Part shown: in pieces, positions 10,334-31,569 of the stretch | How positions within the stretch are numbered: the stretch's first letter is position 1 | Layout of the letters: every line of letters begins with the position of its first letter | Translations under genes and position numbers: made by a program | Assembly: GCF_011758655.1 (NCBI RefSeq) | Contig: NZ_JAAMPA010000002.1 | Location: forward strand, 248,001 to 312,000 | Length of the DNA stretch: 64,000 nucleotides | Direction of reading: 5' to 3' | DNA from: Modestobacter marinus | GTDB taxonomy: Bacteria > Actinomycetota > Actinomycetes > Mycobacteriales > Geodermatophilaceae | The notes under the pieces: model-generated | The model's database searches: none | What the model was told of the DNA's origin: nothing | What the model saw: the letters and a program-made list of their open reading frames with translations, nothing else

Positions 10334-11545
10334 TCAGCGGTCAGGTGCAGGGACGTGCTCGTCGAGCCAGTCGAAGACCCGCTCGTTGCGCAGCCCGACC
10401 GCCGCCGGTTCGCAGTGCCCGTCGGCCCCCTCGTCGGCCGTGAAGGGCAGCAGCGTGACCGGGCAGGTGAGCGCGGCGGCCATCCGGGCGGACTGCCCGG
10501 GCCAGAACTGCTCGTGCTCGGGATCGGTGACCAGCATCGGGCAGGTGATCGCGGCCAGCTGCTCGTCGGTCAGCGCGTACTCGCGGGCGGCGGTGAAGAA
10601 GTCGAACGGCGAGGTGACCCCGTAGGGCCGCATCCGCCACCGCATCGTGGCCCGGGTCGCGGGGGAGAGCTTCAGGGCCCACGCCATGTCCCTGTCGAAC
10701 TGCTCCCGCTTCCCGTCGTCCAGCAGCCGCACGAGGAAGTGCGGGAGCTGCTGCAGCATGGTCGTGGAGACGTCGACCACCCCGGGATCGGCGACCGCGG
10801 CCGCGATGCGGTGCTCGTGGGCCGCCGCCCGGGGCACCCAGTAGCCGCCCTGGCTGATGCCCATGACCGCGATCCGGCCGGGGTCGACGTCCGACCGCTC
10901 GGTCAGGGCGTCGATGACCGGCGTCAGGACGTTCTCCCAGTCCGGGCGGAAGGTCAGGCCCTGGCGCATCAGCGCGGCGTTCTGCCCCGGGCCGTCGTAG
11001 GTCATCGCGTTCCAGCCGCGGGCGAGGGCCTCGGCGATGCCCCGGGACCAGGCTCCGACGACGGAGCCGTCACTGCCGTTGGTGTAGACCAGCGTCCGCC
11101 GGGGGGCGGTGTCGGCCGCGCGGCGGAAGGAGTACCCGGGCAGGGTCGTCCCCGCCCAGGGGATCTCGAGGCGCTCCACGGCCACGTCGCCGACGGCCAC
11201 GGTGCAGTCGACGAACCGGTCCCACGCGTGGCGGTGGGACTCCCACAGCTGCGTGGCGCCGTCGGTGGAGTCGGCCTTGTCCGACGCCTCGGACCAGTAG
11301 CCGGCGGCGCGCAGCCAGCGGGCCGCGGCGCTGCGGAGGTGCCCGGCCGCCTCGGCGGCGCGCGCCTCGCCGGCGACCCGCTCGGCGGTCGCGGACCACT
11401 GCTCGACCCAGGCGCGCGCGTCGCGGTTCGGGATCCGGTCGACGGTGGCCAGCACCTCACCGACGTCGGCCGCGCGGGACCAGGTGCTGCCGAGGACGTT
11501 CTCGACGGCGAACTGGAAGTCGTCGTCGGTGAAGAAGGCGTGCAC
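10334..11545 (-). CDS. Alpha/beta hydrolase (FrsA / dienelactone-hydrolase-like)
   Basis: A 403-residue hydrolase with a helical N-terminal lid of about 150 residues and a C-terminal alpha/beta hydrolase domain. The nucleophile elbow is GISQGG (Ser at about 250). The His is probably in GADGHCEP near the C-terminus, as in FrsA and 2,6-dihydropseudooxynicotine hydrolase. The likely activity is C-C or ester bond hydrolysis; the substrate is unknown. GTG 11545 has GGAG 6 nt upstream. Its promoter region carries the TTGGAG direct repeats also found before three other transcription units here, so it is a predicted target of the neighbouring SARP regulator. Confidence 0.8.
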   Translation of the reverse strand: MHAFFTDDDFQFAVENVLGSTWSRAADVGEVLATVDRIPNRDARAWVEQWSATAERVAGEARAAEAAGHLRSAAARWLRAAGYWSEASDKADSTDGATQLWESHRHAWDRFVDCTVAVGDVAVERLEIPWAGTTLPGYSFRRAADTAPRRTLVYTNGSDGSVVGAWSRGIAEALARGWNAMTYDGPGQNAALMRQGLTFRPDWENVLTPVIDALTERSDVDPGRIAVMGISQGGYWVPRAAAHEHRIAAAVADPGVVDVSTTMLQQLPHFLVRLLDDGKREQFDRDMAWALKLSPATRATMRWRMRPYGVTSPFDFFTAAREYALTDEQLAAITCPMLVTDPEHEQFWPGQSARMAAALTCPVTLLPFTADEGADGHCEPAAVGLRNERVFDWLDEHVPAPDR

Positions 11546-11617: not shown

Positions 11618-11650
11618 ACTGTCCCGGCACCGGCTCCAAGACCTCTCCAA
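11618..11650 (-). promoter_or_regulatory. SARP-type operator and -10 upstream of the hydrolase gene
   Basis: Reading on the minus strand, heptamers TTGGAGA (11650-11644) and TTGGAGC (11639-11633) start exactly 11 bp apart. Nine bases downstream lies GACAGT (11623-11618), a plausible -10. SARP regulators bind heptameric direct repeats of 11-bp period placed about 8 bp before the -10. The same architecture recurs at 16902-16934, 17041-17073 and 19618-19650. Confidence 0.7.
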
Positions 11651-11675
11651 CCGGGTCGGGGCCCGGCCCGGGAGC

Positions 11676-11969
11676 TCAGGCCCGGACGGTCTCCGGGCCG
11701 GTGACCAGGTCGGCGAGGGTCAGGCGGGCGCCCGCCGCGCGGGCGCGCTCGGCCGCGGCGGGCTCCAGGGCCCGGGTGACGCCCGGCAGCACGTGGGACG
11801 TCTCGGCCAGGGCGGGCCACCGCAGCGCGTTGCGCTGGGCCTGGGTGCGTGCGGCGGAGAACAGCCGCACCGACTCGTCGGGGCGGCCGCCCATCGCCGC
11901 GACCAGGGCCCGCAGCTCGAAGGCGACGGGGCCGTCGGACGTGCCGAGGGTCAGCCGGTGGGCGATCAT
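11676..11969 (-). pseudogene. C-terminal part of the SARP regulator beyond an in-frame TGA
   Basis: This 97-codon stretch continues in the same reading frame as the SARP gene. After its TGA (11981-11979) come three sense codons and then ATG 11969. The product is a TPR-like helical segment (ELRALVAAMGG, VRLFSAARTQAQR) of the kind that ends AfsR-type proteins, and codon use does not change across the stop. No ribosome site precedes ATG 11969. Most simply it is the detached end of one gene; reinitiation, readthrough or a sequencing error are alternatives. Confidence 0.6.
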
Positions 11970-11978
11970 CCGGTCGGA

Positions 11979-14591
11979 TCAGGTCAGTGCCCGCGCGGGG
12001 TCGGCCGCCCGGAGCGCGGCGACCACCGACATCCCGGCGACGAGCAGCGCCACGTGCGCGTTGCCCAGCTGCAGGGCGCGGCGGTGCAGGCCGCTGAGCG
12101 CCTCGTCGGTGCCGAGCCCGTCGACGCTGCCGGCCAGGGTCGCGCACGCGTCGGCGAAGAGGTCGAGCTCCGGGTCCGTGCCGGTGGCGACGGCCGCGGC
12201 CCGCACCCGTCCGGCGACCTCGCGGGCGGCGTCGGGACCACCGGCCGCGACGAGCGAGTGCGTCAGCAGGGTGAGCACCTCGGCGACGACCCGCGACGCG
12301 GCGTGCCCGCTGCCGTCCAGCAGGGCGAAGGCCGCGGCGACGTGCGGCCCGGCGAGGTCGTCGTCCCCACCGGAGCAGAGGTGGTGGGCCAGGGTCAGCC
12401 GGACCAGCGCGGCCGACAGCGGGTCGGCGAGGTGCTCGTGGTCGATCGCCCGCTCCGCCCAGGCCCGCCCCTCGACCGTCTTGCTCCGGAAGTACCAGAA
12501 CGCGCCCAGCCGGCCGGCCAGCCACACCCCGTCGGCGGAGGGGCGCTCCACCAGGAGGTGCTGCAGGGTGGCGCGGACGGCGGGCAGGTCGTCGTCGAGC
12601 GCGTCGAACCAGGCCCGCTCGGTCACGTGCCCCAGCGGGGGCCGGTCCCGGACCAGGCCGGCCACCCACGCGTCCCGGCTCCGGACCAGCCGGGGCCCGT
12701 CCGCGGCCGCGGCGTGGCAGGCGTGCCCCCGGATGGTGGCGAGCTGGGTGAACCGGCTCCGCCCGCCCGGCCGGGCCGGACCCAGGGGCACCAGCAGGGA
12801 GTGGTGGACCAGCCGGGCGACCAGGTCGGCGGTCCTCCCGGCGTCCCCGTCGGTGCCGCGGTACACGCCGTCGGCCGCAGCCACGGTGAAGGGGCCGGGG
12901 AGGGCGGAGAGGCTGCGGTGCAGGGCGGCCTCGTCGGCGGGCAGCGCGGCACAGCTCTGCTCGATCGCGACGCGGACCGTCCGGTGGTGGTCGCTCCCGC
13001 GTCCCATCCGGGCCAGGGAGCTGGGGTCGGCGGTGACCTGGTGGGCGATCTCCTCCAGGGTGAACGCCCGGGCCCGGTCGGCGGCCAGCTCCAGCGCCAG
13101 GGGCACCCCGTCCACGGCGGTGGCGATCCGCACCACCGCGCTGAGCAGGCCGAGGTCCCGGCGGTCGGCACCGGTGGCCGCGAGCCGGTCCAGCAGCAGG
13201 GCGACGGCGGGGGAGGCCGTGGCGTCGCCGTCGTCGGTGGGCGGGGGCAGCGGACCGACCGGGTGGACGTGCTCGCCGTCGACCTCCAGCGGCTCCCGGC
13301 TGGTCGCCAGGACGGCGAGCCCGCCCGGCACCCGGGACCAGTCGTCGACGAGGTCGGCGACCGGGTCGAGGACCTGCTCGCAGTTGTCCAGCACCAGCAG
13401 GGCCCGCCGGTCCCGCAGGAACGCCCGCACGGCCGCTCCGGGCCGGGCGGTGTCGGCCGGCGCGAGGGCGAGGGCGGACACGACCGTGGAGAGCACCGAG
13501 CCGGCGTCCCGCGCGGCGGTGAGGTCGACGAACCAGACGCCGCCGGGGAACCGGCCGGCCAGCGTGCGGGCCACCTCGACGGCCAGCCGCGTCTTGCCGC
13601 ACCCGGCCGCGCCCACCAGCGTGGTCAGCCCCCGCCGGGGCACGGTCTCGGCCAGCCCGGCCAGCTCCTGCTCCCGGCCCACCAGCGCAGACACCCGGTG
13701 GGGGAGGTGCACCTCGACCGGCCCGCCGCCGCCAGCCGCCCCGGACCCGGGTGCCGCCGGGGAACGGACCGTCGGAGCTGCCGGGACCCAGGGTCCCGGG
13801 CCCGCGAGCGTGGGGTCCTCGGCCAGGATGCGGGCCTGCAGCTCGCGCAGCTCGGTGCCCGGCTCGAGCCCCAGCTCGTCGAGCAGCACCCGGCGGACCT
13901 CGGCGTAGCTGCGCAGCGCCTCCTCCGCCCGGCCGAGGCGGTGCTGGGCGAGCATCCGCAGCGACCAGAGCCGCTCCCGCAGCGGCGTCTCCGCCAGACC
14001 GGGGCCGAGGGCCAGCAGTGCCCGCTCCGGCGCGCCGCAGGAGAGCAGCGCCTCGGCGAGCAGCTCCCGCAGCTGGTCGCGGACCTCGGTCAGCCGGGCC
14101 ACCGCCGCCACCGCCCACGGCTCGTCCGCGAATCCGGCGTAGGGCTGCCCCCGCCACAGGGCCAGGGCCCGTTCGGCGGTGCGGCGGGCGTCCTCGGGCC
14201 GGCCCGCGGCGAGCAGCTCCCGGGCCTCGTCGGCCAGCGCGGCGAAGCGCACCGAGTCGATGGTCGCGGCGTCGGTCACCAGCCGGTAGCCGCCGAGGTC
14301 GCGGCGCAGCGTGGCCGACGGGCGGCCACGCTCGCGCTGCGGTTCGAGCGCCTTGCGCAACCGCCAGACGTGCGAGTCCAGGGTGGACGGCGACCGGGAC
14401 GGCGACTCAGCGCCCCACATGGCCTCGGACAGCGCGCCGACGCCGACGTGCTGCCCGGCGTGCACCAGCAGCAGGGCGAGCGCGGCGGCGAGCCGGGTGC
14501 CGCCCAGGCCGACCGGGACCCCGGCACGCTCGACCTCCAGGGGACCGAGGTCCCGGATGCGCAGGGCGCCGTCGGGTGTGTCGGACTGCAC
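11979..14591 (-). CDS. AfsR/SARP-family transcriptional regulator
   Basis: An 870-residue regulator. Residues 10-105 form an OmpR-type winged helix (LDSHVWRLRKAL recognition region, then GGYRLVTD). Residues 110-260 are the bacterial transcriptional activation domain (LWRGQPYAGFADEPW, LGLEPGTELRELQ). An NB-ARC ATPase follows with Walker A VGAAGCGKTR at about 326-335, Walker B LLVLDNCEQ and GVPLALELAADR, then TPR-like helices. GTG 14591 has a near-perfect AGGAGGT 6 nt upstream. The frame is cut by TGA at 11979 although coding character continues to 11676, so the product lacks about 100 C-terminal residues. Predicted targets are the neighbouring units carrying 11-bp-spaced TTGGAG repeats. Confidence 0.85.
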   Translation of the reverse strand: MQSDTPDGALRIRDLGPLEVERAGVPVGLGGTRLAAALALLLVHAGQHVGVGALSEAMWGAESPSRSPSTLDSHVWRLRKALEPQRERGRPSATLRRDLGGYRLVTDAATIDSVRFAALADEARELLAAGRPEDARRTAERALALWRGQPYAGFADEPWAVAAVARLTEVRDQLRELLAEALLSCGAPERALLALGPGLAETPLRERLWSLRMLAQHRLGRAEEALRSYAEVRRVLLDELGLEPGTELRELQARILAEDPTLAGPGPWVPAAPTVRSPAAPGSGAAGGGGPVEVHLPHRVSALVGREQELAGLAETVPRRGLTTLVGAAGCGKTRLAVEVARTLAGRFPGGVWFVDLTAARDAGSVLSTVVSALALAPADTARPGAAVRAFLRDRRALLVLDNCEQVLDPVADLVDDWSRVPGGLAVLATSREPLEVDGEHVHPVGPLPPPTDDGDATASPAVALLLDRLAATGADRRDLGLLSAVVRIATAVDGVPLALELAADRARAFTLEEIAHQVTADPSSLARMGRGSDHHRTVRVAIEQSCAALPADEAALHRSLSALPGPFTVAAADGVYRGTDGDAGRTADLVARLVHHSLLVPLGPARPGGRSRFTQLATIRGHACHAAAADGPRLVRSRDAWVAGLVRDRPPLGHVTERAWFDALDDDLPAVRATLQHLLVERPSADGVWLAGRLGAFWYFRSKTVEGRAWAERAIDHEHLADPLSAALVRLTLAHHLCSGGDDDLAGPHVAAAFALLDGSGHAASRVVAEVLTLLTHSLVAAGGPDAAREVAGRVRAAAVATGTDPELDLFADACATLAGSVDGLGTDEALSGLHRRALQLGNAHVALLVAGMSVVAALRAADPARALT

Positions 14592-14779
14592 CGGGACACC
14601 TCCTGCGAGCTGTCCCGGTGACGCGGAGCGGGGCGCCCGACCTCGGTGACGCGGGCGCCGTGGCGGCGCCCGGGGCACCGGGTGCCGGTGCTCGTCGGAC
14701 GACTGCGTACCGCATCTCCCGCGGTCGCGGTAGGCCCTTGCGCGCGGGGCAGTGCGGCGCGCACGGGCGGCCGGGCACC

Positions 14780-15529
14780 TCAGCCGGCGACCGGGTTCGG
14801 TACCGCTGGAGTCGTGCGGGGCGGCACCGCGGCGAACAGGTCGACCAGGCGGTCCCAGCGGTTGCGCCGTCCGGGCGGGAACCGTCTCCTGCTCCGGGCC
14901 GCGCGGCGGCTGCCGGGCCGGTACCAGCGGCGCGCCCACGGGGAGGCCGGGCGGGCCAGCCGGACGGCGGCGACGGCGGCGATCAGGGGGACGAACACCC
15001 CCGCCACGCCCAGCACCACCCGCCCCTTGAGGATGGCGACGACCGCGAAGCAGAGGTTGAGCAGGACGGTGAGGGCCAGCACGCCCTCGCCCCGTGACCG
15101 GTCGGCGTCGAACGGGTTGGCGCCGATGAGCAGCATCCCGCCGACGACCGCCGCGAGCAGGACCGCGTCCACCGAGCTGCGGCCCTCCCGTGACCAGTAC
15201 ACGTCCTCCAGGTGCAGCCAGAGCGCGAACTCGTCGAGCGTGAGCGCCGCGCCGGCGCCGAAGAGCGCGGCGAGCAGGCCGGCCCACGTGCCGTCCGGGC
15301 GGTAGGCGAACTCGGCGGTGCCCGTGCCCAGCAGGAGGAAGATGCCGTACACCTCGTGGTGCACGTGCACCCCGCCGACGCGGGCGTCCCGGAACGGGCC
15401 CCGGCCCGTGCGGATCGCGTGCGTGACGAACCGGGTGACCAGGAAGGTCACCAGGAAGCCCAGCACCAGCCACGCGACGAGCTCCCGCCGGCCGGTCAGC
15501 GACGGCAGCAGTTCCGGTGCCCAGCCCAC
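14780..15529 (-). CDS. Conserved actinobacterial integral membrane protein
   Basis: A 249-residue protein with about six membrane helices and a basic C-terminal tail rich in arginine. Conserved-looking polar motifs sit at membrane edges: HVHHEVYGIFLL after helix 1 and LTLDEFALWLHLEDVYW after helix 3, arranged like a His/Asp/Glu cluster that might bind metal. I know similar proteins in actinobacteria only as hypothetical integral membrane proteins. GTG 15529 was chosen because GGGAGG lies about 6 nt upstream; GTG 15535 would overlap that site. It lies upstream of the SARP gene on the same strand with a 188-bp gap. Confidence 0.65.
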   Translation of the reverse strand: MGWAPELLPSLTGRRELVAWLVLGFLVTFLVTRFVTHAIRTGRGPFRDARVGGVHVHHEVYGIFLLLGTGTAEFAYRPDGTWAGLLAALFGAGAALTLDEFALWLHLEDVYWSREGRSSVDAVLLAAVVGGMLLIGANPFDADRSRGEGVLALTVLLNLCFAVVAILKGRVVLGVAGVFVPLIAAVAAVRLARPASPWARRWYRPGSRRAARSRRRFPPGRRNRWDRLVDLFAAVPPRTTPAVPNPVAG

Positions 15530-15649
15530 GTCCACCTCCCTGCCTCGCCGCTGCAGCCTGCGGGGTGCCGCTGCACGCCGACGCCGGCGACCGGCGCCGT
15601 GGCGGGCCGGCCGACCCCCTCGGGAACCGCAGCTCCGGTCACCGCGGGG

Positions 15650-16855
15650 TCATCGTGCCGGGCCCACCGGGTCCGCGGGGGACGGCGAGGCCGCCGGCCG
15701 GGCCGGTCCGCGGCCCAGCGCGACGACCACGGCGGGGAACACCAGGACGGTGACCATGCCCGCGCCGACGAGGGCCGCGGCGTCGTCGGAGGTCATCGTG
15801 CCGCTGCGCACCGCGATCTCGGTGAGCGCGACCAGCACCGGCAGCGCCGTGGCGCTGACCAGGGCGGTCTGGCAGCGCTCGCGCCGGTCCAGGACCCGGC
15901 GGTAGACCAGCAGCACCGGGCCGCCCCGCACCGCGAGCATCAGGACCAGGAAGAGCACGAGCAAGAGCGGTGCGGCCGCGATCGCGGGCAGGTCCAGGTT
16001 CATCCCCGAGTAGACGAAGAAGAGCGGGACGAAGAACCCGTAGCCCACGGCGTCGAGCTTGGACTCCAGCTCCGGCGCGGCCTCGCCCACCCACCGGCGC
16101 AGCACGATCCCGGCGAGGAAGGCCCCGAGCACGGCGTCCAGGTGGAACCGGTCGGTCAGCGCGACCAGCGTCAGCAGCAGCAGGATCGTGCCCCGCAGGG
16201 TGATCTGCGCGGTCTCGTGCTGCCCGGCCCGGACGACGTCGGCCAGCCGGCTGCCGTCCCGGACCCCGTGCCGCAGCAGGCCGAGCAGCACCGCCAGGGC
16301 GGCGACGCCGCCCAGGGACACCAGCGCGGTGACCCGGCCCTGGCTGCCCAGGAAGACGGCGATCACCAGCACCGGCAGCAGCTCACCGACCCCGCCCGCC
16401 GCGAGCAGGTACCGCCCCAGCCGGCCATGGAGCAGGCCCTCCTCGCGCAGCACCGGGAGCAGCGTGCCCAGGGCCGTGGTGGTCAGCCCCAGCGCGACCG
16501 GGAGGAACGCCTCGACCAGCCCGGCGGCGGTGAGCAGGCCGACCACGACGGCGGCGAGCCCGAAGGAGACCGCCCAGGAGAGCAGTGCCCGCCGTCCGGC
16601 GTCCTGCCGGAACAGCCGCAGGTCCAGCTCGTAGCCGGCCAGCAGGAAGACGAACCCGAGCCCCACGTCGGCGAGCACCTGCACGCCCGCCGGCGAACCG
16701 ATGCCCAGGACGTGCGGGCCGATGACGACACCGCCGACCAGCAGCAGCACCACCTGCGGTACCGGCAACCGGGGGAGTAGCCCGACGAGCAGGGCCGCGA
16801 GCAGCGCGACCGCGGCCACGGCGGCGAGGGTGTCGATCGAGACGACGTCGTCCAC
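15650..16855 (-). CDS. Kef-type cation:proton antiporter (CPA2 family)
   Basis: A 401-residue integral membrane protein with about 12 helices and the Na+/H+ exchanger fold. Characteristic segments are VGGVVIGPHVLG, LLAGYELDL, LGAFLAGIVLRR and FFVPLFFVYSGMNLDL. It should exchange K+ or Na+ for protons at the cytoplasmic membrane. No C-terminal RCK/TrkA-N domain is present, so it is of the short type. GTG 16855 has GGGGAG upstream; the frame runs open to 17638 but overlaps the divergent gene. Its promoter carries the 11-bp-spaced TTGGAG repeats, making it a predicted SARP target. Confidence 0.85.
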   Translation of the reverse strand: MDDVVSIDTLAAVAAVALLAALLVGLLPRLPVPQVVLLLVGGVVIGPHVLGIGSPAGVQVLADVGLGFVFLLAGYELDLRLFRQDAGRRALLSWAVSFGLAAVVVGLLTAAGLVEAFLPVALGLTTTALGTLLPVLREEGLLHGRLGRYLLAAGGVGELLPVLVIAVFLGSQGRVTALVSLGGVAALAVLLGLLRHGVRDGSRLADVVRAGQHETAQITLRGTILLLLTLVALTDRFHLDAVLGAFLAGIVLRRWVGEAAPELESKLDAVGYGFFVPLFFVYSGMNLDLPAIAAAPLLLVLFLVLMLAVRGGPVLLVYRRVLDRRERCQTALVSATALPVLVALTEIAVRSGTMTSDDAAALVGAGMVTVLVFPAVVVALGRGPARPAASPSPADPVGPAR

Positions 16856-16901
16856 CCGCGCTCCCCTCGGCACCCGCGACCGGCGGCGCGGCGTGCCGCG
16901 G

Positions 16902-16934
16902 ATCCTGGTGAGGATCCCTCCAACCGCGCTCCAA
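16902..16934 (-). promoter_or_regulatory. SARP-type operator and -10 upstream of the antiporter gene
   Basis: On the minus strand TTGGAGC (16934-16928) and TTGGAGG (16923-16917) start 11 bp apart. After nine bases comes CAGGAT (16907-16902), a fair -10 hexamer. The start codon lies about 47 nt further on. Spacing is identical to the other three copies. Confidence 0.7.
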
Positions 16935-17040
16935 CGGAACAGCCTCCCGACGGCAGGTGACGGATCCGGGACACCCTGCGGCGGGCGGAGGGGGGTGACG
17001 CGTCCGACGGGTGCGGGACGCCGGGGTCGTCCAGCGGGCC

Positions 17041-17073
17041 TTGGAGCCCGGTTGGAGCGCCCGGCGGGATCGT
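17041..17073 (+). promoter_or_regulatory. SARP-type operator and -10 upstream of gene 17082
   Basis: TTGGAGC (17041-17047) and TTGGAGC (17052-17058) are identical heptamers 11 bp apart. Nine bases on is GATCGT (17068-17073). A -10 there places the transcript start at or next to ATG 17082, so a leaderless mRNA is predicted. Confidence 0.7.
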
Positions 17074-17081
17074 GACCGGCC

Positions 17082-17708
17082 ATGAAGCCGTTCTCCTTCG
17101 TCCTGGGTCTCCTGCCCTGGATCGTCTTCACCGTCGTGGCCGACCGGATGGCGGCCGACGCGGTCGCCTGGAGCGCCCTGCTCGCCGTCGCGATGACCGT
17201 CGTCGGCCTGGCCGTCGCCGCCCGGCGGCACGGGCCGACGGCGCTGAACGCGGTCTCGCTCGTCCTGTTCACCGGCATCGCCGTCGCCGGCTTCGCCGGT
17301 GGCGCGGGCGTCGACGACTGGCTGTTCCGGTGGGGGCAGCCGCTGGTGGGGGTGGCCCTCGGCCTGTACGTGCTGGCGACGGCCGCCACGCGCCCCTTCA
17401 CCGAGGAGTACGCCCGCCGGTCGGCCCCGCGCGAGGTCTGGGGGTCGCCCACCTTCCGGTCGGTCAACCGGGTCCTCAGCGCGGCCTGGGGCGCCGGTCT
17501 GGTCGTCATCGGGGCGGCCGGGGTGCTGGTCACGCTGCTGGACGAGCACGCCACCAGTCGCGACTCGGCGCACCTGCCCGAACTGGTGCTGAACTGGGTC
17601 GTGCCCCTGGTGGTCGTCTGGGCGCTGATCCGGTTCACCGGCGCCTACCCCGACCGGGTCACCTCGCACGCCGGGCAGGGCCCCGCCGTGGCACCCGGGG
17701 CCCGCTGA
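17082..17708 (+). CDS. Hypothetical five-helix membrane protein, predicted SARP target
   Basis: A 208-residue membrane protein: helices at about 5-25, 30-48, 57-75, 88-103, 136-155 and 168-185. A charged loop between the fourth and fifth (TRPFTEEYARR, then FRSVNRVLSAAWG) resembles DUF3159-like or VC0807-family membrane proteins, but I cannot assign a family firmly. ATG 17082 fits a leaderless start 9 nt after a -10 hexamer; no ribosome site is needed or seen. It is divergent from the antiporter gene, sharing a 226-bp region with one SARP-type operator facing each way, and converges on the decarboxylase gene. Confidence 0.65.
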   Translation: MKPFSFVLGLLPWIVFTVVADRMAADAVAWSALLAVAMTVVGLAVAARRHGPTALNAVSLVLFTGIAVAGFAGGAGVDDWLFRWGQPLVGVALGLYVLATAATRPFTEEYARRSAPREVWGSPTFRSVNRVLSAAWGAGLVVIGAAGVLVTLLDEHATSRDSAHLPELVLNWVVPLVVVWALIRFTGAYPDRVTSHAGQGPAVAPGAR

Positions 17709-17750
17709 CCCCGGCCGGTGCGGTGTCCGGGACGCGGCGTGCGCCGAGCG

Positions 17751-19544
17751 TCAGGGGCCCGCGCCCGGTGCGCCGAGGGCGCGGGTGAGGGTGGCGAGCA
17801 GCGCCGGGACGTCGTCGCGGGGGACGACGGCCTGCACGAGGGCGAACCCACCGGGGTCGTCGGCGGCCTCGCGGTAGGCCTGCCGCAGCGCGCCGACGGT
17901 GCTGGCCCGGTCGGTGCGGACGCGCTCGCCGCTGCAAAACAGGCGGGCCAGCGCGGTCCAGTCCCAGCGGGCGATGTCGTTGTACGGCTGGTCGGCGCCG
18001 TGGATGGCCCGCTCGACCGTGTAGCCGGCGTTGTCCACCACGACGACGAGCGCGGGCAGCCGCTCCCGGAGCACGGTGGCGAGCTCCTGGACGGTCATCT
18101 GGGCGGCGCCGTCGCCGATGAGCAGGACACCGCGACGGCCGGGCGCGGCCGTGCCGGCACCCAGGAGCGCGGGCAGGGCGTACCCGATGGAGGCCCACAG
18201 CGGCTGCCCGACGAAGGTCACGCCGGGCGGCAGCCGGTGCGGCGCCATGCCGTAGAACGAGGTGCCCTGGTCGGCGAGGACGACGTCGCCCGGGCGCAGC
18301 GCGGCCGTGGTCTCCCGCCAGAGCGCGGCCTGGGTCAGCGGGGCCGCGTCGTCGTCCGGTCGTCCGTCGGCCGGCTCCTCCGGCGGCGGCAGGGGAGCGG
18401 GGGTCAGGGCCGCGACCACCGGGCGCAGCGCGGCGAGCGCGGCCGGCAGCTCCAGCGGCGCGAACACGGCTGCCCCGACGCGCGCCGACCGCGGGGACAG
18501 GTCGATCGTCCGGGCGCGGGAGATCCGCTGGGTGAACAGGCCGCTGGTGAGATCGGTGAACTGGACGCCGGCCAGCACCAGCGCCGCGGCGTCCTCCACG
18601 ACCGCCCGGGTCGACTCCGAGCTGCCGGCCGCGCCGGCGTAGGTCCCGGCGAACCCGGGGGCCGTCTCGTCGAGCAGGCTCTTGGCCCACGGGGTCGTGG
18701 CGTGCGGCAGGGGCCCGGCGGCGAGCAGGCCGGCCAGCTCGTCCACCGCGCCGAACCGGTGCACGAGGAGGCCGGCGAGCACCGCGACCCGGTCGGTGGA
18801 CCCGGCCCGGGCGAGGAGCTGCGCGGCAGCCGCGGTGAAGGCCTCGAGCACCTCGGGGTCGGTGCCGTCGGCGCGGAGGGGGAGCGACGCCGGTGCGCGT
18901 TCGGCGGGCAGCTCGGCGACGTCCGCCGGCACGAGGAGGTAACCGGGCAGCCGGCTGTCCCGGACCTCGGTGAGCACGCGGTCGACCTCGTCGACGGCGG
19001 TGCCCGGTGCGAGCACGGCGCGGGCGCAGGTGATGTCGGTGTGCATGGCCGCGAAGTGGCCGAACACCCCGTCGCCCAGGGTGTGGTGCAGCGCGCGGTG
19101 CTCGGCCTGTCTCGCCAGTGCAGGGGCGCCCACCACGTGGACGACCGGCACGTGCTCGGCGTAGCTGCCCGCGATGGCGTTGACCGCGCTGAGCTCACCG
19201 ACGCCGAAGGTGGTGCACAGCGCCGCCAGGCCGCGCAGCCGCGCGTAGCCGTCGGCGGCGTACCCGGCACCGAGCTCGGTGACGCACCCGGTCCAGCGCA
19301 CGGTCGGGTGCGCGGTGACGTGGTCGAGCAGCCGGAGGCTGTAGTCGCCGGGCACCCCGAACACCCGGTCGACCCCCAGCTCGGCCAGCCGGTCGACCAG
19401 GTGGTCGGCGACGGTGTACGGCGCCATGTCCACGGCAGCCATGTCCACGGCGGCCATGTCCACGGCGGCCATGTCCACGGCGGTCATGTCCACGGTGACC
19501 GCGCCGGCGGGTGGGGAACCGTCGTCCTCGGGTGTGGTGTGCAC
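17751..19544 (-). CDS. Thiamine-diphosphate-dependent 2-oxo-acid decarboxylase (pyruvate/indolepyruvate decarboxylase-like)
   Basis: A 597-residue ThDP enzyme of the pyruvate/indolepyruvate decarboxylase group, converting a 2-oxo acid to aldehyde and CO2. The N-terminal PYR domain has GVPGDYSLRLLD with the catalytic Glu in CVTELGAGYAADGYAR, and the His pair HH in LHHTLGDG that marks decarboxylases. The C-terminal PP domain has the ThDP motif GDGAAQMT ending in VVDNAGYTVE. Indolepyruvate, phenylpyruvate or pyruvate are all possible substrates. GTG 19544 has GAGAGGGG upstream. The first 40 residues include five tandem M-A/T-A-V-D units that precede the normal start of the fold (YTVADHLVDRL). 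A SARP-type operator lies upstream. Confidence 0.85.
   Translation of the reverse strand: MHTTPEDDGSPPAGAVTVDMTAVDMAAVDMAAVDMAAVDMAPYTVADHLVDRLAELGVDRVFGVPGDYSLRLLDHVTAHPTVRWTGCVTELGAGYAADGYARLRGLAALCTTFGVGELSAVNAIAGSYAEHVPVVHVVGAPALARQAEHRALHHTLGDGVFGHFAAMHTDITCARAVLAPGTAVDEVDRVLTEVRDSRLPGYLLVPADVAELPAERAPASLPLRADGTDPEVLEAFTAAAAQLLARAGSTDRVAVLAGLLVHRFGAVDELAGLLAAGPLPHATTPWAKSLLDETAPGFAGTYAGAAGSSESTRAVVEDAAALVLAGVQFTDLTSGLFTQRISRARTIDLSPRSARVGAAVFAPLELPAALAALRPVVAALTPAPLPPPEEPADGRPDDDAAPLTQAALWRETTAALRPGDVVLADQGTSFYGMAPHRLPPGVTFVGQPLWASIGYALPALLGAGTAAPGRRGVLLIGDGAAQMTVQELATVLRERLPALVVVVDNAGYTVERAIHGADQPYNDIARWDWTALARLFCSGERVRTDRASTVGALRQAYREAADDPGGFALVQAVVPRDDVPALLATLTRALGAPGAGP
19423..19497 (-). 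repeat. Five tandem 15-bp units in the decarboxylase N-terminus
   Basis: CATGTCCACGGCGGC-type units start with CAT at 19425, 19440, 19455, 19470 and 19485, exactly 15 bp apart. On the coding strand each unit gives Val-Asp-Met-Ala/Thr-Ala, so every unit offers an in-frame ATG. Unit-number change would keep the frame. Confidence 0.85.
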
Positions 19545-19617
19545 GGTCCGGCCCCTCTCCCGTCCACCGGCCCGGGCGCAGGCCGGCAGCCCGGCGGCTG
19601 GTCCGCCGGACGTCCGC

Positions 19618-19650
19618 ACTGTGCCGGGCAGGCCTCCAAGGCCGCTCCAA
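19618..19650 (-). promoter_or_regulatory. SARP-type operator and -10 upstream of the decarboxylase gene
   Basis: On the minus strand TTGGAGC (19650-19644) and TTGGAGG (19639-19633) start 11 bp apart. Nine bases later is CACAGT (19623-19618), nearly the same -10 as before the hydrolase gene (GACAGT). The start codon is about 74 nt downstream. Confidence 0.7.
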
Positions 19651-29083: not shown

Positions 29084-30784
29084 TCAGTGCGGCCCCTCGC
29101 GCTCGGGTTCGGGTCTCGGCGGTCCCGCCTGCCGTTGCCGGTCCTCCGTGAGGTAGCCGCTGACGAGCTGCTCGGCGGTCGAGGCGGTGGCGGTGGAGCC
29201 GGTGACCGCCGAGACGAACTGGGGCCCGCTGAGCGTGGCGAGCTCGGTGTCCTCGAGGGCGTGGACGGTCGCCGTCCGCGGCACCGCCTGGAGCAGGGCG
29301 ATCTCGCCGAACGCCGCTCCGGGCCCCAGCCGGCGGATCTCGTACCCGTCGTCGAGGACGGCCACCTGGCCGGACTCGATGACGTAGAACCCGTCGCCGG
29401 GATCGCCCTTGCGGAACACGTCGGTCCCCGCCGGGACGCGGGTGCGGCCCAGGCGCATCGCCAGGCTCTCGATGGCCGGGACGGGCAGCAGGCGGAGCAT
29501 GCCGACCCGGCGCAGCAGCACGATCCGGTCCCGCCGGACGCCGATGTCGGCATCGATCGCCCGCAGCGCGGCCCAGCGTGCGGCGACCGCCAGCGGCAGG
29601 ACGGCTCCGGTGGCGATCAGGGCGCCCGTGTCGCCCAGCGCGGCGAGGAGGAACGGGACCGCCAGGGAGCCGAGGGCCAGCGCCAGCGAGAACACCGCCT
29701 CGGTCAGGGCCAGGACCCGCGCGAGCGTCTGGTCGGGGACGAGTCGCTGCAGCAGGGTGAACCCGGTGACGTCGACGAGTGCGTTGGCGGCACCGATGAC
29801 GACGAAGGCGCCGACCGCGACGGCGTCGCCCGTCACCAGGCCGATGAGGACGATCGGCAGGCCCCACAGCGCGACCCCGGCACCGAAGAGGGTGCCGAGG
29901 CGGGCGCTCCCGGCCGCGCCGATCGACGCCAGCGCCGCTGCCAGGCCGCCGACCCCGAACGCCGCCCAGAGGACCCCGACCCCGGGGCGGCCCAGGTCGG
30001 TGACCTCCACGGCCACCACCACGGCCAGCACGGTCAGCGCGCCGCGCACCACGCACTGCGCGCCGCCCAGCACGATCACCTCCAGCGCGCGGGGCCGGCG
30101 ACGGAGCTCCCGCAGGCCGTCGACCACGTCGTCGACCACCCCGGTGCGAGGGGGCTGCTCGGCGGCGGCAGCGCGCGGCGACTCGTAGCGCAACCGGGCA
30201 GCGAGGACCCCGGCCGCACCGGCCAGCAACGCCACCGCCGCGAACGCGGCCGCCGGGTCGTACGCCACGAGCAGCGCAGCCGCGGCGAGGGGGCCGATGA
30301 GCGCGGCCGCACCGTCCAGGATGGCCCGGATCGCGTTCACCCCGGTGAGCTCGTCCGGGGCGGTGCACAGCATGGGGAACAGCGCCGCGAGCACCGGCCG
30401 GTAGGCCGCGTGGCAGACCGTCGACAGGGTCAGCAGGGCGTAGACCGCGACCGGCTGGGCGACGGCGACCGCCGCCCCCGCCGCGGTGCCCGCCCGGAGC
30501 GCGCAGGCGACGACGAGCAGCTGCCGGCGCGAGACGCGGTCGGCCAGCACCCCCAACCACGGGAGCGCGACCGTCGCCGGCAGCACGCGCAGGAACCCGA
30601 CCAGGCCCACACCGGCCGCGCCGTCCTGGTCGAACGCGTACACCGTCATCGCCGACAGGAACAGGAACTCGCCCGTCCAGGCCGACAGCGACGACAACTG
30701 CGCGAGCCGGAGGTTCCGGTTGCGGGTCACCGATGCCCAGGCGTCGCGGTAGGAGCCCGCCACGGCGCGGACGCTAACAGCCAC
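29084..30784 (-). CDS. MFS transporter with C-terminal cyclic-nucleotide-binding domain
   Basis: A 566-residue fusion. Residues 10-420 form a 12-helix MFS transporter (FLRVLPATVALPWLGVLADRVSRRQ is the loop 2-3 region). Residues 440-545 are a cyclic-nucleotide-binding domain: VFRKGDPGDGFYVIESGQVAVLD region, then the phosphate-binding cassette FGEIALL..VPRTATV with the needed Glu and Arg. It ends in a charged tail. Transport would thus be gated by cAMP or cGMP. GTG 30784 was chosen; GTG 30763 is an alternative and neither has a strong ribosome site. It lies 65 bp downstream of a cyclase-like gene on the same strand. Confidence 0.8.
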   Translation of the reverse strand: MAVSVRAVAGSYRDAWASVTRNRNLRLAQLSSLSAWTGEFLFLSAMTVYAFDQDGAAGVGLVGFLRVLPATVALPWLGVLADRVSRRQLLVVACALRAGTAAGAAVAVAQPVAVYALLTLSTVCHAAYRPVLAALFPMLCTAPDELTGVNAIRAILDGAAALIGPLAAAALLVAYDPAAAFAAVALLAGAAGVLAARLRYESPRAAAAEQPPRTGVVDDVVDGLRELRRRPRALEVIVLGGAQCVVRGALTVLAVVVAVEVTDLGRPGVGVLWAAFGVGGLAAALASIGAAGSARLGTLFGAGVALWGLPIVLIGLVTGDAVAVGAFVVIGAANALVDVTGFTLLQRLVPDQTLARVLALTEAVFSLALALGSLAVPFLLAALGDTGALIATGAVLPLAVAARWAALRAIDADIGVRRDRIVLLRRVGMLRLLPVPAIESLAMRLGRTRVPAGTDVFRKGDPGDGFYVIESGQVAVLDDGYEIRRLGPGAAFGEIALLQAVPRTATVHALEDTELATLSGPQFVSAVTGSTATASTAEQLVSGYLTEDRQRQAGPPRPEPEREGPH

Positions 30785-30849
30785 GTCACCGCACCGGCGC
30801 CGGATCGGACGCCGTCTCTCCGGACGCCTCGCTGCTCGGCGAGCGGATC

Positions 30850-31569
30850 TCAGGTGGCTGACGCCAGCGACCGCACCCGGCGGCGGGGCAGGACGTGGGG
30901 GAGCCCCCGGCCCACCATGTCGAAGGTGGCACCGAGGCGCAGCAGCAGCGACGGGGCCGGCAGGTCCGCGAGGGGTGCGGCGATGTCCTCGACGTCGATG
31001 TAGAAGCTGCGCACCGGCCCGATGCCCTCGAGGTCCTGCGCGATCTCGTGGGCGACCAGCTCGGCGGAGGCCGGGCCGCCGTTGGCGTAGAGGTCGTCGG
31101 TGACGAGGAGGTACTCCGGCACCGTGACCGGGTTCTTGAGCAGGCGGTGGACGTAGATCACGTCCATGCCGACCAGCTTCTTCCGGCGCCGGATCGTCTG
31201 GGTGGCGACGTCGCCGACGTGCGCGACGAACTTCAGCTTCAGCGCGCTGGTCCGCGTGCAGCTCCCGCAGGGGCACATGTTGAGCTCGATCAGCCGGCGC
31301 TGCGCGTGGAAGGAGCTGTGCATGGCGACGGCGGTACGCGTGAGGGCGGTCAGCGTCGCAGCTCCGTCCAGCCCGTCGGCGTCCCGGGCCAGGAAGGCCG
31401 CGTCACCCTCGATCTCGATCAGGTCGAACCCCCGCGCGGCGTCGACGACCTTGTCGAGCAGCCGCTTGGTGGCCGCCTCGGCGTGCCCCAGCATGCTGCG
31501 GTGGTACTGCATGTACTCCGTGTAGCCGCCGATGTCGGCGATCAGCAGCAGCGCACGCTGGGTGGCCAT
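30850..31569 (-). CDS. DUF2652 / class III nucleotidyl-cyclase-like protein
   Basis: A 239-residue protein resembling the class III adenylate/guanylate cyclase fold. LLLIADIGGYTEYM gives the first metal Asp (A-D-I-x-G-[FY]-T), and IEIEGDAAFLA the second (x-x-G-D). The Lys normally just before GD is Glu here, and later substrate residues are not evident, so activity is doubtful. A CPCGSC pair of cysteines (about residues 99-104) is unusual for cyclases and may bind metal. ATG 31569 starts the gene. The downstream partner carries a cyclic-nucleotide-binding domain. Confidence 0.7.
   Translation of the reverse strand: MATQRALLLIADIGGYTEYMQYHRSMLGHAEAATKRLLDKVVDAARGFDLIEIEGDAAFLARDADGLDGAATLTALTRTAVAMHSSFHAQRRLIELNMCPCGSCTRTSALKLKFVAHVGDVATQTIRRRKKLVGMDVIYVHRLLKNPVTVPEYLLVTDDLYANGGPASAELVAHEIAQDLEGIGPVRSFYIDVEDIAAPLADLPAPSLLLRLGATFDMVGRGLPHVLPRRRVRSLASAT

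What the first reader, a model, noticed from the sequence alone, without database searches (positions are those of the whole stretch)
11618..19650. Local SARP regulon defined by four identical operator/promoter architectures
Four sites have two TTGGAG(A/C/G) heptamers starting exactly 11 bp apart, then 9 bp, then a -10-like hexamer (GACAGT, CAGGAT, GATCGT, CACAGT): before the hydrolase (11618-11650), antiporter (16902-16934), gene 17082 (17041-17073) and decarboxylase (19618-19650). Two point left and one right within a divergent or convergent block around an AfsR/SARP gene. SARP proteins are known to bind heptamer direct repeats of 11-bp period about 8 bp before the -10. No biosynthetic cluster is evident, so a SARP controlling a hydrolase, a Kef-type antiporter, a 2-oxo-acid decarboxylase and an unknown membrane protein would be a new kind of SARP regulon.
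Basis: partly seen in the sequence, partly recalled or inferred. Interest (0 to 1): 0.9.

Follow-up and report, generated by a model that had tools for sequence, protein, structure and literature searches.

The report
SARP regulon without antibiotic assembly genes
A regulator of the family that usually switches on antibiotic production appears, in soil and rock actinobacteria, to control a small shifting set of transport, envelope and oxidation genes through one very exact DNA switch, which can be read from sequence and now needs a bench test.

Summary
TTGGAGN5TTGGAG occurs four times in the 5.1-Mb genome, all within 8 kb around one SARP gene. In 112 Geodermatophilaceae genomes the pair is found in 8 of 8 with an intact close SARP orthologue and 3 of 104 others. 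All 26 exact sites in SARP-bearing loci (8 whole genomes, two 22-kb Blastococcus loci) have nAnnnT at gap 10; the 4 stray sites do not. 23 of 26 lie within 80 bp of a start codon. Two SARP-less relatives keep decayed copies at the antiporter promoter. The recognition helix is shared by all 13 close orthologues compared, Pseudonocardia included. The SARP-operator link is strongly supported; binding and activation are untested. In relatives the operator also precedes LysX, a PgdA-like deacetylase, an FAD monooxygenase, a BBE oxidase and an AMP ligase. No polyketide or peptide assembly gene was seen, but only part of the neighbourhood was scanned. The promoter mechanism is textbook SARP; the regulon is new. 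Its purpose (protection or a small pathway) is open. The window's SARP gene carries an in-frame TGA at codon 871 of 971.

The parts
11618..11650 (-). operator/promoter of the hydrolase gene: TTGGAGAGGTCTTGGAG, 10 bp, GACAGT (hexamer at 11618-11623)
   Evidence: start codon GTG 11545 is 73 away by the measure
16902..16934 (-). operator/promoter of the antiporter gene: TTGGAGCGCGGTTGGAG, 10 bp, CAGGAT (hexamer 16902-16907)
   Evidence: distance 47; the orthologous promoters of G106, G025, L102, L103 hold the site with 1 mismatch 32-46 from the start; decayed copies in G101 and G100
17041..17073 (+). operator/promoter of the 208-aa membrane protein gene: TTGGAGCCCGGTTGGAG, 10 bp, GATCGT (hexamer 17068-17073); ATG follows 8 nt later, so the mRNA is probably leaderless (inferred)
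   Evidence: distance 8-9 by the measure in 5 of 5 loci where the gene was found (0, 0, 0, 1 and 2 mismatches)
19618..19650 (-). operator/promoter of the decarboxylase gene: TTGGAGCGGCCTTGGAG, 10 bp, CACAGT (hexamer 19618-19623)
   Evidence: distance 74 to GTG 19544; the GTG at 19619 listed overlaps the hexamer, so 19544 is the likelier start (inferred)
11979..14591 (-). large SARP regulator: winged-helix DNA-binding domain, BTAD, NB-ARC/AAA; 870 codons, then an in-frame TGA (11979-11981); the same frame goes on for 100 codons to a stop at 11676-11678
   Evidence: Pfam Trans_reg_C, BTAD, AAA_22, NB-ARC; stops at codons 871 and 972; G106, G041 and G065 have Trp at codon 871
10334..11545 (-). 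alpha/beta hydrolase, 403 aa
   Evidence: Pfam Peptidase_S9; PDB: SMU_737 9.2e-15, 2,6-dihydroxypseudooxynicotine hydrolase 9.2e-08, Yg1 and AntI weaker
14780..15535 (-). 251-aa membrane protein of unknown family, 80-84% identical in 7 relatives
   Evidence: no Pfam or NCBIfam match; alignment A2; in G106 and L103 a 1-mismatch operator lies 64 upstream; none in the window
15650..16855 (-). CPA2 (Kef-type) cation:proton antiporter, 401 aa
   Evidence: Pfam Na_H_Exchanger 5.6e-51; NCBIfam CPA2 112.8 bits, below its cut-off of 238.3
17082..17708 (+). 208-aa membrane protein, weakly VC0807-like
   Evidence: no Pfam match; NCBIfam VC0807_fam 35.3 bits, cut-off 65
17751..19544 (-). thiamine-diphosphate 2-oxo-acid decarboxylase, indolepyruvate-decarboxylase-like, 597 aa
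   Evidence: 587.4 bits, below the equivalog cut-off of 946; 1ovm, E 4.8e-146

Best explanation
The SARP encoded at 11979-14591 (minus) binds pairs of TTGGAG(C) repeats 11 bp apart that take the place of a -35 element, and recruits RNA polymerase to a weak -10, mostly G(G/C)A(C/G)(A/G)GT, exactly 10 bp further on, activating the hydrolase, antiporter, 208-aa membrane protein and decarboxylase genes. By analogy with AfsR (PMC10936776), two protomers would sit side by side on the two repeats and contact sigma region 4, and the NB-ARC and C-terminal part would hold the activator back until a signal or ATP is bound. Shown: operator structure, its uniqueness in the genome, co-occurrence with this SARP and loss with it, position before start codons, shared recognition helix. 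Inferred: binding, activation, dimer geometry, sensor role. For the regulon's purpose I favour an inducible protective response (ion homeostasis, envelope modification, oxidative conversion of small molecules) over antibiotic synthesis, with low confidence (about 0.5, against 0.35 for a small metabolic pathway); the confidence below is for the SARP-operator link.
For: Four of four exact sites of the genome lie around this SARP. 8 of 8 family genomes with an intact close orthologue have the exact pair, 3 of 104 others (P 3.5e-10, which takes the genomes as independent, though several are close kin). 26 of 26 exact sites in SARP-bearing loci have nAnnnT at gap 10; at the other gaps from 4 to 21 only 1 of 26 once, at gap 19; 0 of 4 stray sites at gap 10. 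In Pseudonocardia, 63-65% identical SARPs go with the same operator somewhere in the genome. The helix STLDSH(V/I)WRLRK is the same in all 13 close orthologues compared. G102, whose SARP is a remnant, has no site with 2 or fewer mismatches. G101 and G100, without a close SARP, keep the antiporter operator with 1 and 3 mismatches at the same distance. The genome has three BTAD matches over the Pfam cut-off; the other two are partial and weaker.
Against: No binding or expression data. The window's own SARP is cut by TGA at codon 871, and in 4 of the 7 other family genomes with an intact DNA-binding domain the C-terminal part is missing, fused or frameshifted. In the four Geodermatophilus genomes examined (G041, G042, G047, G065) the antiporter has no site, and of 9 SARP-less antiporter promoters examined 7 show no relic. 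No site lies before the SARP gene itself in the window. In two near-identical Pseudonocardia records (L108, L109) no site with 2 or fewer mismatches lies within the 22-kb SARP locus; their sites are elsewhere. G116 (Nakamurella, 44% SARP) has none with 1 mismatch. Response-regulator genes, by their first residues, stand near several loci.
Confidence: 0.87

Rival explanations
1. The SARP does control these promoters, but the regulon is a small specialised or catabolic pathway (C-C or ester hydrolase, FAD monooxygenase, BBE oxidase, AMP ligase, 2-oxo-acid decarboxylase) rather than a protective response; envelope and transport genes come along as self-protection and export.
For: The FAD monooxygenase resembles aromatic polyketide and rifampin oxygenases; the hydrolase weakly resembles AntI and Yg1; BBE oxidase, AMP ligase and a SnoaL-like protein stand under the same operator in relatives; monooxygenase, ligase and hydrolase relatives recur in Pseudonocardia.
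Against: No polyketide, peptide or terpene scaffold gene among the proteins scanned with Pfam (27 proteins, not every neighbour); gene content shifts from genome to genome and of this set the window has only hydrolase and decarboxylase.
Confidence: 0.35
2. Another transcription factor that travels with the SARP gene reads the operators.
For: Co-occurrence alone cannot separate neighbours. G106 has a second, 50% identical BTAD protein in the same cluster. Genes that look like response regulators by their first residues stand near L028 and L103, L031 and L032, L032 and L033.
Against: Two 11-bp-spaced repeats about 8 bp before a weak -10 is the documented SARP layout (PMC10936776). Those response regulators are of at least three kinds by their first residues and none was seen in the window's 7-24 kb list or in the G106 lists L037 and L038 (lists read by first residues only).
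Confidence: 0.06
3. The operators are real but the window strain's regulon is dying: the TGA makes the SARP inactive.
For: TGA at codon 871; decay in G102 and relic operators in G100 and G101 of the same genus.
Against: All four operators are perfect; DBD, BTAD and NB-ARC come before the TGA; own-G106 dN/dS over the DBD-BTAD is 0.27, within the range of pairs of full-length SARPs, 0.22-0.46 (crude). In AfsR the isolated SARP domain activates more than the whole protein (PMC10936776).
Confidence: 0.15
4. A dispersed repeat or mobile element, or chance.
For: Only the identical repeat pairs themselves.
Against: 26 exact sites are 26 distinct 45-mers; each has a gene of its own downstream.
Confidence: 0.01

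Closest known systems
AfsR of Streptomyces coelicolor and the afsS promoter (large SARP; PDB 8hvr, 8jke, 8k60)
   Same: DBD-BTAD-NB-ARC order; two 11-bp direct repeats; poor -35; weak -10 (CACTGT there, CACAGT and the like here); AfsR R92, which contacts a T of the repeat, aligns with R77 here
   Different: different repeat sequence; not the AfsR orthologue (NCBIfam AfsR 161.7 bits against a cut-off of 1430); local, variable regulon; 5 of 8 family orthologues lack an intact C-terminal part
Small SARPs such as ActII-ORF4, RedD, DnrI
   Same: DBD-BTAD; heptamer repeats; G042 has such a short form (273 aa)
   Different: those control antibiotic clusters (PMC10972967, passages); no such cluster was seen here
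EmbR of Mycobacterium tuberculosis
   Same: SARP-type DBD-BTAD (2fez matched) with targets outside an antibiotic cluster (PMC9239209, passages)
   Different: FHA domain instead of NB-ARC; different targets
SARP-LAL regulators PimR, SanG, PolR
   Same: two or three heptamer repeats, ATP-binding C-terminal half
   Different: PimR heptamer CGGCAAG (PMC5930380, passages); antibiotic clusters

Membership tests
SARP regulators (regulator protein) | N-terminal OmpR-type winged-helix DNA-binding domain | tested here: met
   Trans_reg_C PF00486, 29.1 bits over cut-off 26.2
SARP regulators (regulator protein) | bacterial transcriptional activation domain (BTAD) | tested here: met
   PF03704, E 1.2e-35; AfsR and EmbR chains matched
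Large SARPs | NB-ARC/AAA domain after BTAD | tested here: met
   AAA_22 and NB-ARC over cut-off
Large SARPs | C-terminal TPR domain | tested here: inconclusive
   no TPR family reported for the 880-aa stretch scanned, which ends at the TGA
AfsR (orthologue) | score over the NCBIfam AfsR equivalog cut-off | tested here: not met
   161.7 of 1430 bits
SARP operators | direct repeats starting 11 bp apart | tested here: met
SARP operators | 3' repeat about 8 bp before the -10 element | tested here: met
   9 bp after the heptamer in 26 of 26 exact sites; definition from PMC10936776
SARP operators | bound by the SARP | not testable with these tools
   needs EMSA or ChIP
Cluster-situated SARP of an antibiotic gene cluster | scaffold-making biosynthetic genes under its control | tested here: inconclusive
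   none among the 27 proteins scanned with Pfam; not every neighbouring gene was scanned

The most novel reading that the evidence does not exclude
A SARP, of the family known for switching on antibiotic production, has become the switch of an inducible protective island: it turns on envelope charge changes (LysX, PgdA-like deacetylase), ion antiport, permeases and enzymes that oxidise or cleave foreign small molecules, answering neighbours' antibiotics instead of making one's own; loss of the NB-ARC/TPR part in several lineages leaves it always on.
Probability: 0.2. Interest if true: 0.78.

Novelty: new variant of a known kind. Interest (0 to 1): 0.62.

Why it matters
It gives a SARP operator so specific that it can be found by eye and tested with one 33-bp probe, in a family (Geodermatophilaceae) for which the one library search that joined the two names found no paper. 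It shows a SARP regulon built of genes that each carry their own copy of the operator and come and go around the regulator, with decayed operators left in two relatives that lack it: a natural record of how a regulon is assembled and dissolved. If the products prove protective, it widens what SARPs are for.

Tried and rejected
Chance and dispersed repeats were rejected. Another BTAD protein of the genome as the binder was judged unlikely (three matches over the cut-off; the others 68.3 bits over positions 37-145 and 28.3 bits near a contig end). The AfsR orthologue reading was rejected. An acid-resistance reading (LysX, permease, antiporter) was dropped: tblastn found no LysX or permease relative in the 64-kb window at E 1e-10. 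'The gene always carries the operator' is false: the antiporter of the four Geodermatophilus genomes examined has none (16 of 25 antiporter loci could be examined; in 9 my start-codon search failed and I dropped them; G028, the 26th genome, was not given to the script). In seven SARP-less genomes the 33-bp pattern with up to 2 mismatches gives 8 places against 9 for the control, so apart from the G101 relic it is at chance level there. G179's single exact site precedes a MeaB-like gene and is probably chance; G340's lies upstream of a 50% identical SARP and may be self-regulation. dN/dS (crude): pairs of full-length SARPs 0.22-0.46, pairs with a shortened one 0.26-0.63; this leans to relaxed constraint in the shortened ones, against the always-on reading. 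Structure prediction was asked for four times and never ran. In one search the text TTGGAG and SARP stand together in 52 papers, 8 listed; in PMC5930380 it occurs once, but the passages shown do not display it, so I cannot say what it is there.
Full report
What is there. The four sites are at the coordinates given. Each is TTGGAG-N5-TTGGAG-N10-nAnnnT. Three point left (11618-11650, 16902-16934, 19618-19650) and one right (17041-17073). They lie 9 to 74 bases (measure) before the starts of an alpha/beta hydrolase, a CPA2 antiporter, a 208-aa membrane protein and an indolepyruvate-decarboxylase-like enzyme.

More than chance. The exact pair occurs four times in the 5.10-Mb genome, only here; backwards control 0. 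One mismatch adds one place, control 2; the 33-bp form with up to two mismatches still gives only the four, control 2. In the family (112 genomes) 11 have the exact pair, 25 sites in all; the backwards control has 4 sites in 4 genomes. In 397 genomes of the order, drawn from a larger group, the exact 33-bp pattern is in 9 genomes, 20 sites; 7 of the 9 are genomes with the close SARP orthologue and hold 18 sites; control 1.

Link to the SARP. The DBD-BTAD part finds close orthologues (72-82% identity) in 7 further family genomes (G106, G025, G041, G065, G047, G056, G042) and a remnant in G102; the next best are 50% (a second copy in G106) and 48% (G058), then 43% or less (E up to 1e-40). Exact pair: 8 of 8 with the intact DBD, 0 of 1 remnant, 3 of 103 others (G021, G026, G036); hypergeometric P 3.5e-10 for 8 of 8 against 3 of 104, which ignores that some of these genomes are close kin. 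All 21 exact sites of those 8 genomes and the 5 in two 22-kb Blastococcus loci (L102, L103; their whole genomes were not held) have nAnnnT at gap 10; over gaps 4 to 21 the only other match is 1 of 21 at gap 19; of the 4 stray sites none has it at gap 10. The 26 sites are 26 distinct 45-mers. The hexamer is (G/C)A, then mostly C or G, then G, A or C, then G (24 of 26) and T, with G before it in 22 of 26.

With up to two mismatches in the 33-bp pattern, 34 sites are found in 9 genomes (the 8 and G102) against 12 for the control; 29 of the 34 lie in the SARP neighbourhood, G102 has none. Beyond the 21 exact ones these are the antiporter (G106, G025), the 251-aa membrane protein (G106), the FAD monooxygenase (G041, G047, G065), the AMP ligase (G041) and one in G041 without a called gene. 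In seven SARP-less genomes the same search gives 8 places against 9 for the control.

Beyond the family. Close SARPs (63-65% identity) occur in four Pseudonocardia records, two of them alike in every called gene. Their genomes have exact or one-mismatch sites: G112 2, G113 4, G114 4, G115 4; control 0. Near the SARP itself there is an exact site in L107, a two-mismatch site in L106, and none in L108 and L109, so there the regulon is scattered rather than local. One site of G115 (the same sequence occurs in G114) is inside a called gene and is likely chance. Targets there: a PrsW-like protease followed by the AMP ligase, a BBE-type oxidase, an FAD monooxygenase (57% to the Geodermatophilus one), a DUF1269 protein, a SnoaL-like protein, and an AMP ligase (69%) divergent from a hydrolase 72% identical to that of G106, which itself has no site of 2 or fewer mismatches. 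The 44% identical SARP of Nakamurella (G116) has no such site at one mismatch. The recognition helix STLDSH(V/I)WRLRK is the same in the window and the 12 other close orthologues; the more distant ones differ (STLESH, STLETH and others).

Regulon content. By gene caller and domain scans: hydrolase (exact site in 7 of 7 Geodermatophilaceae loci where tblastn found it at over 75%: window, G106, G025, G041, G047, L102, L103), 208-aa membrane protein (5 of 5 loci, 0-2 mismatches, start 8-9 after the hexamer by the measure, hence probably leaderless), antiporter, decarboxylase (own site in the window; behind the hydrolase in G041 and behind the membrane protein in G106), LysX lysyl-phosphatidylglycerol synthase, PgdA-like polysaccharide deacetylase, BBE oxidase, FAD monooxygenase, AMP ligase, lipase-like hydrolase. 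An amino-acid permease stands behind LysX (L037, L103, L036) and a 288-298-aa membrane protein behind the antiporter (L037, L103, L036), on the same strand and close, so probably in those operons. For exact sites the start codon is within 80 bases in 23 of 26; the others are two LysX starts (about 150 and 190; the G106 LysX frame is broken near its start) and one PgdA start (about 180, though an in-frame GTG lies 41 away).

Relics. In G101 and G100 (same genus, no close SARP) the antiporter, followed directly by the 251-aa membrane protein, keeps the operator at the window's 46 bases from the start with 1 and 3 mismatches. Chance of 3 or fewer at one fixed position is about 7e-6, of 1 or fewer 1.4e-8 under simple base frequencies. 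The other 7 SARP-less antiporter promoters examined have nothing better than 6 mismatches. G102 has a short frame that joins what looks by eye like an antiporter piece to a SARP piece. Some neighbours of the G100, G101 and G102 loci are alike by first residues, so the locus was probably present in an ancestor of these and lost more than once (inferred).

Regulator. Pfam: Trans_reg_C, BTAD, AAA_22, NB-ARC. Solved relatives by sequence: AfsR and EmbR only. In the window the frame stops at TGA after 870 codons and goes on for another 100; G106, G041 and G065 have Trp there. G042 has 273 aa; G056 and G025 lose similarity soon after the BTAD, in G025 with an open frame running through the operator into the hydrolase; G047 is in three pieces in different frames. 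Sequencing error cannot be excluded. AfsR's NB-ARC and TPR parts inhibit it (PMC10936776: abstract, passages and section 7 read), so shortened forms may be always on; this is inference.

Literature. PMC10936776 gives the SARP rule: repeats 11 or 22 bp apart, the 3' repeat 8 bp from the -10; afsS -10 is CACTGT. PMC10972967, PMC7040171, PMC9239209 and PMC5930380 were seen in passages only. Among the papers listed by searches-37 and 55-58 none, by title and start of abstract, treats this operator or a SARP regulon in Geodermatophilaceae; several listings were cut (8 of 52, 8 of 96, 15 of 34, 10 of 15) and the library is open-access only. EmbR shows that SARP-family regulators outside antibiotic clusters are not unheard of.

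Verdict. SARP-operator regulon: 0.87. Mechanism at the promoter: as in known SARPs. Regulon content: new. Purpose: undecided.

Noticed in passing
window 11979-11981: In-frame TGA in the SARP gene where G106, G041 and G065 have Trp; the frame stays open for another 100 codons.
   Followed up: partly
L028:10342-12654: In Blastococcus haudaquaticus (G025) the shortened SARP frame runs without a stop through the operator into the hydrolase gene, a possible fusion.
   Followed up: partly
L032, L033, L035: SARP C-terminal part missing (G042, G056) or in pieces (G047) while the DNA-binding and activation domains stay intact.
   Followed up: partly
L038:994-3858: Second, about 50% identical (DBD-BTAD) SARP in the same cluster of G106.
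   Followed up: no
L130:1501-1533: In G340 a perfect 33-bp site lies upstream of a 50% identical SARP gene, possible self-regulation.
   Followed up: partly
window 19414-19500: The decarboxylase N-terminus has a short tandem repeat (VDMAAVDMAAVDM...), and the L032 membrane protein a VDLDGVDLDG repeat at its start.
   Followed up: no
window 14780-15535: 251-aa membrane protein without Pfam match, strongly conserved (VHHEVYGIFLLLG stretch), in the loci seen always near the antiporter or SARP.
   Followed up: partly
window 29084-31569: Two genes here (559 and 239 aa) resemble, by first residues, the genes flanking the G106 locus (L037:2-2391), so the locus may sit in the same chromosomal place.
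   Followed up: no
L028, L103, L031, L032, L033: Genes that look like response regulators by their first residues stand near several of the SARP loci; of at least three kinds.
   Followed up: no
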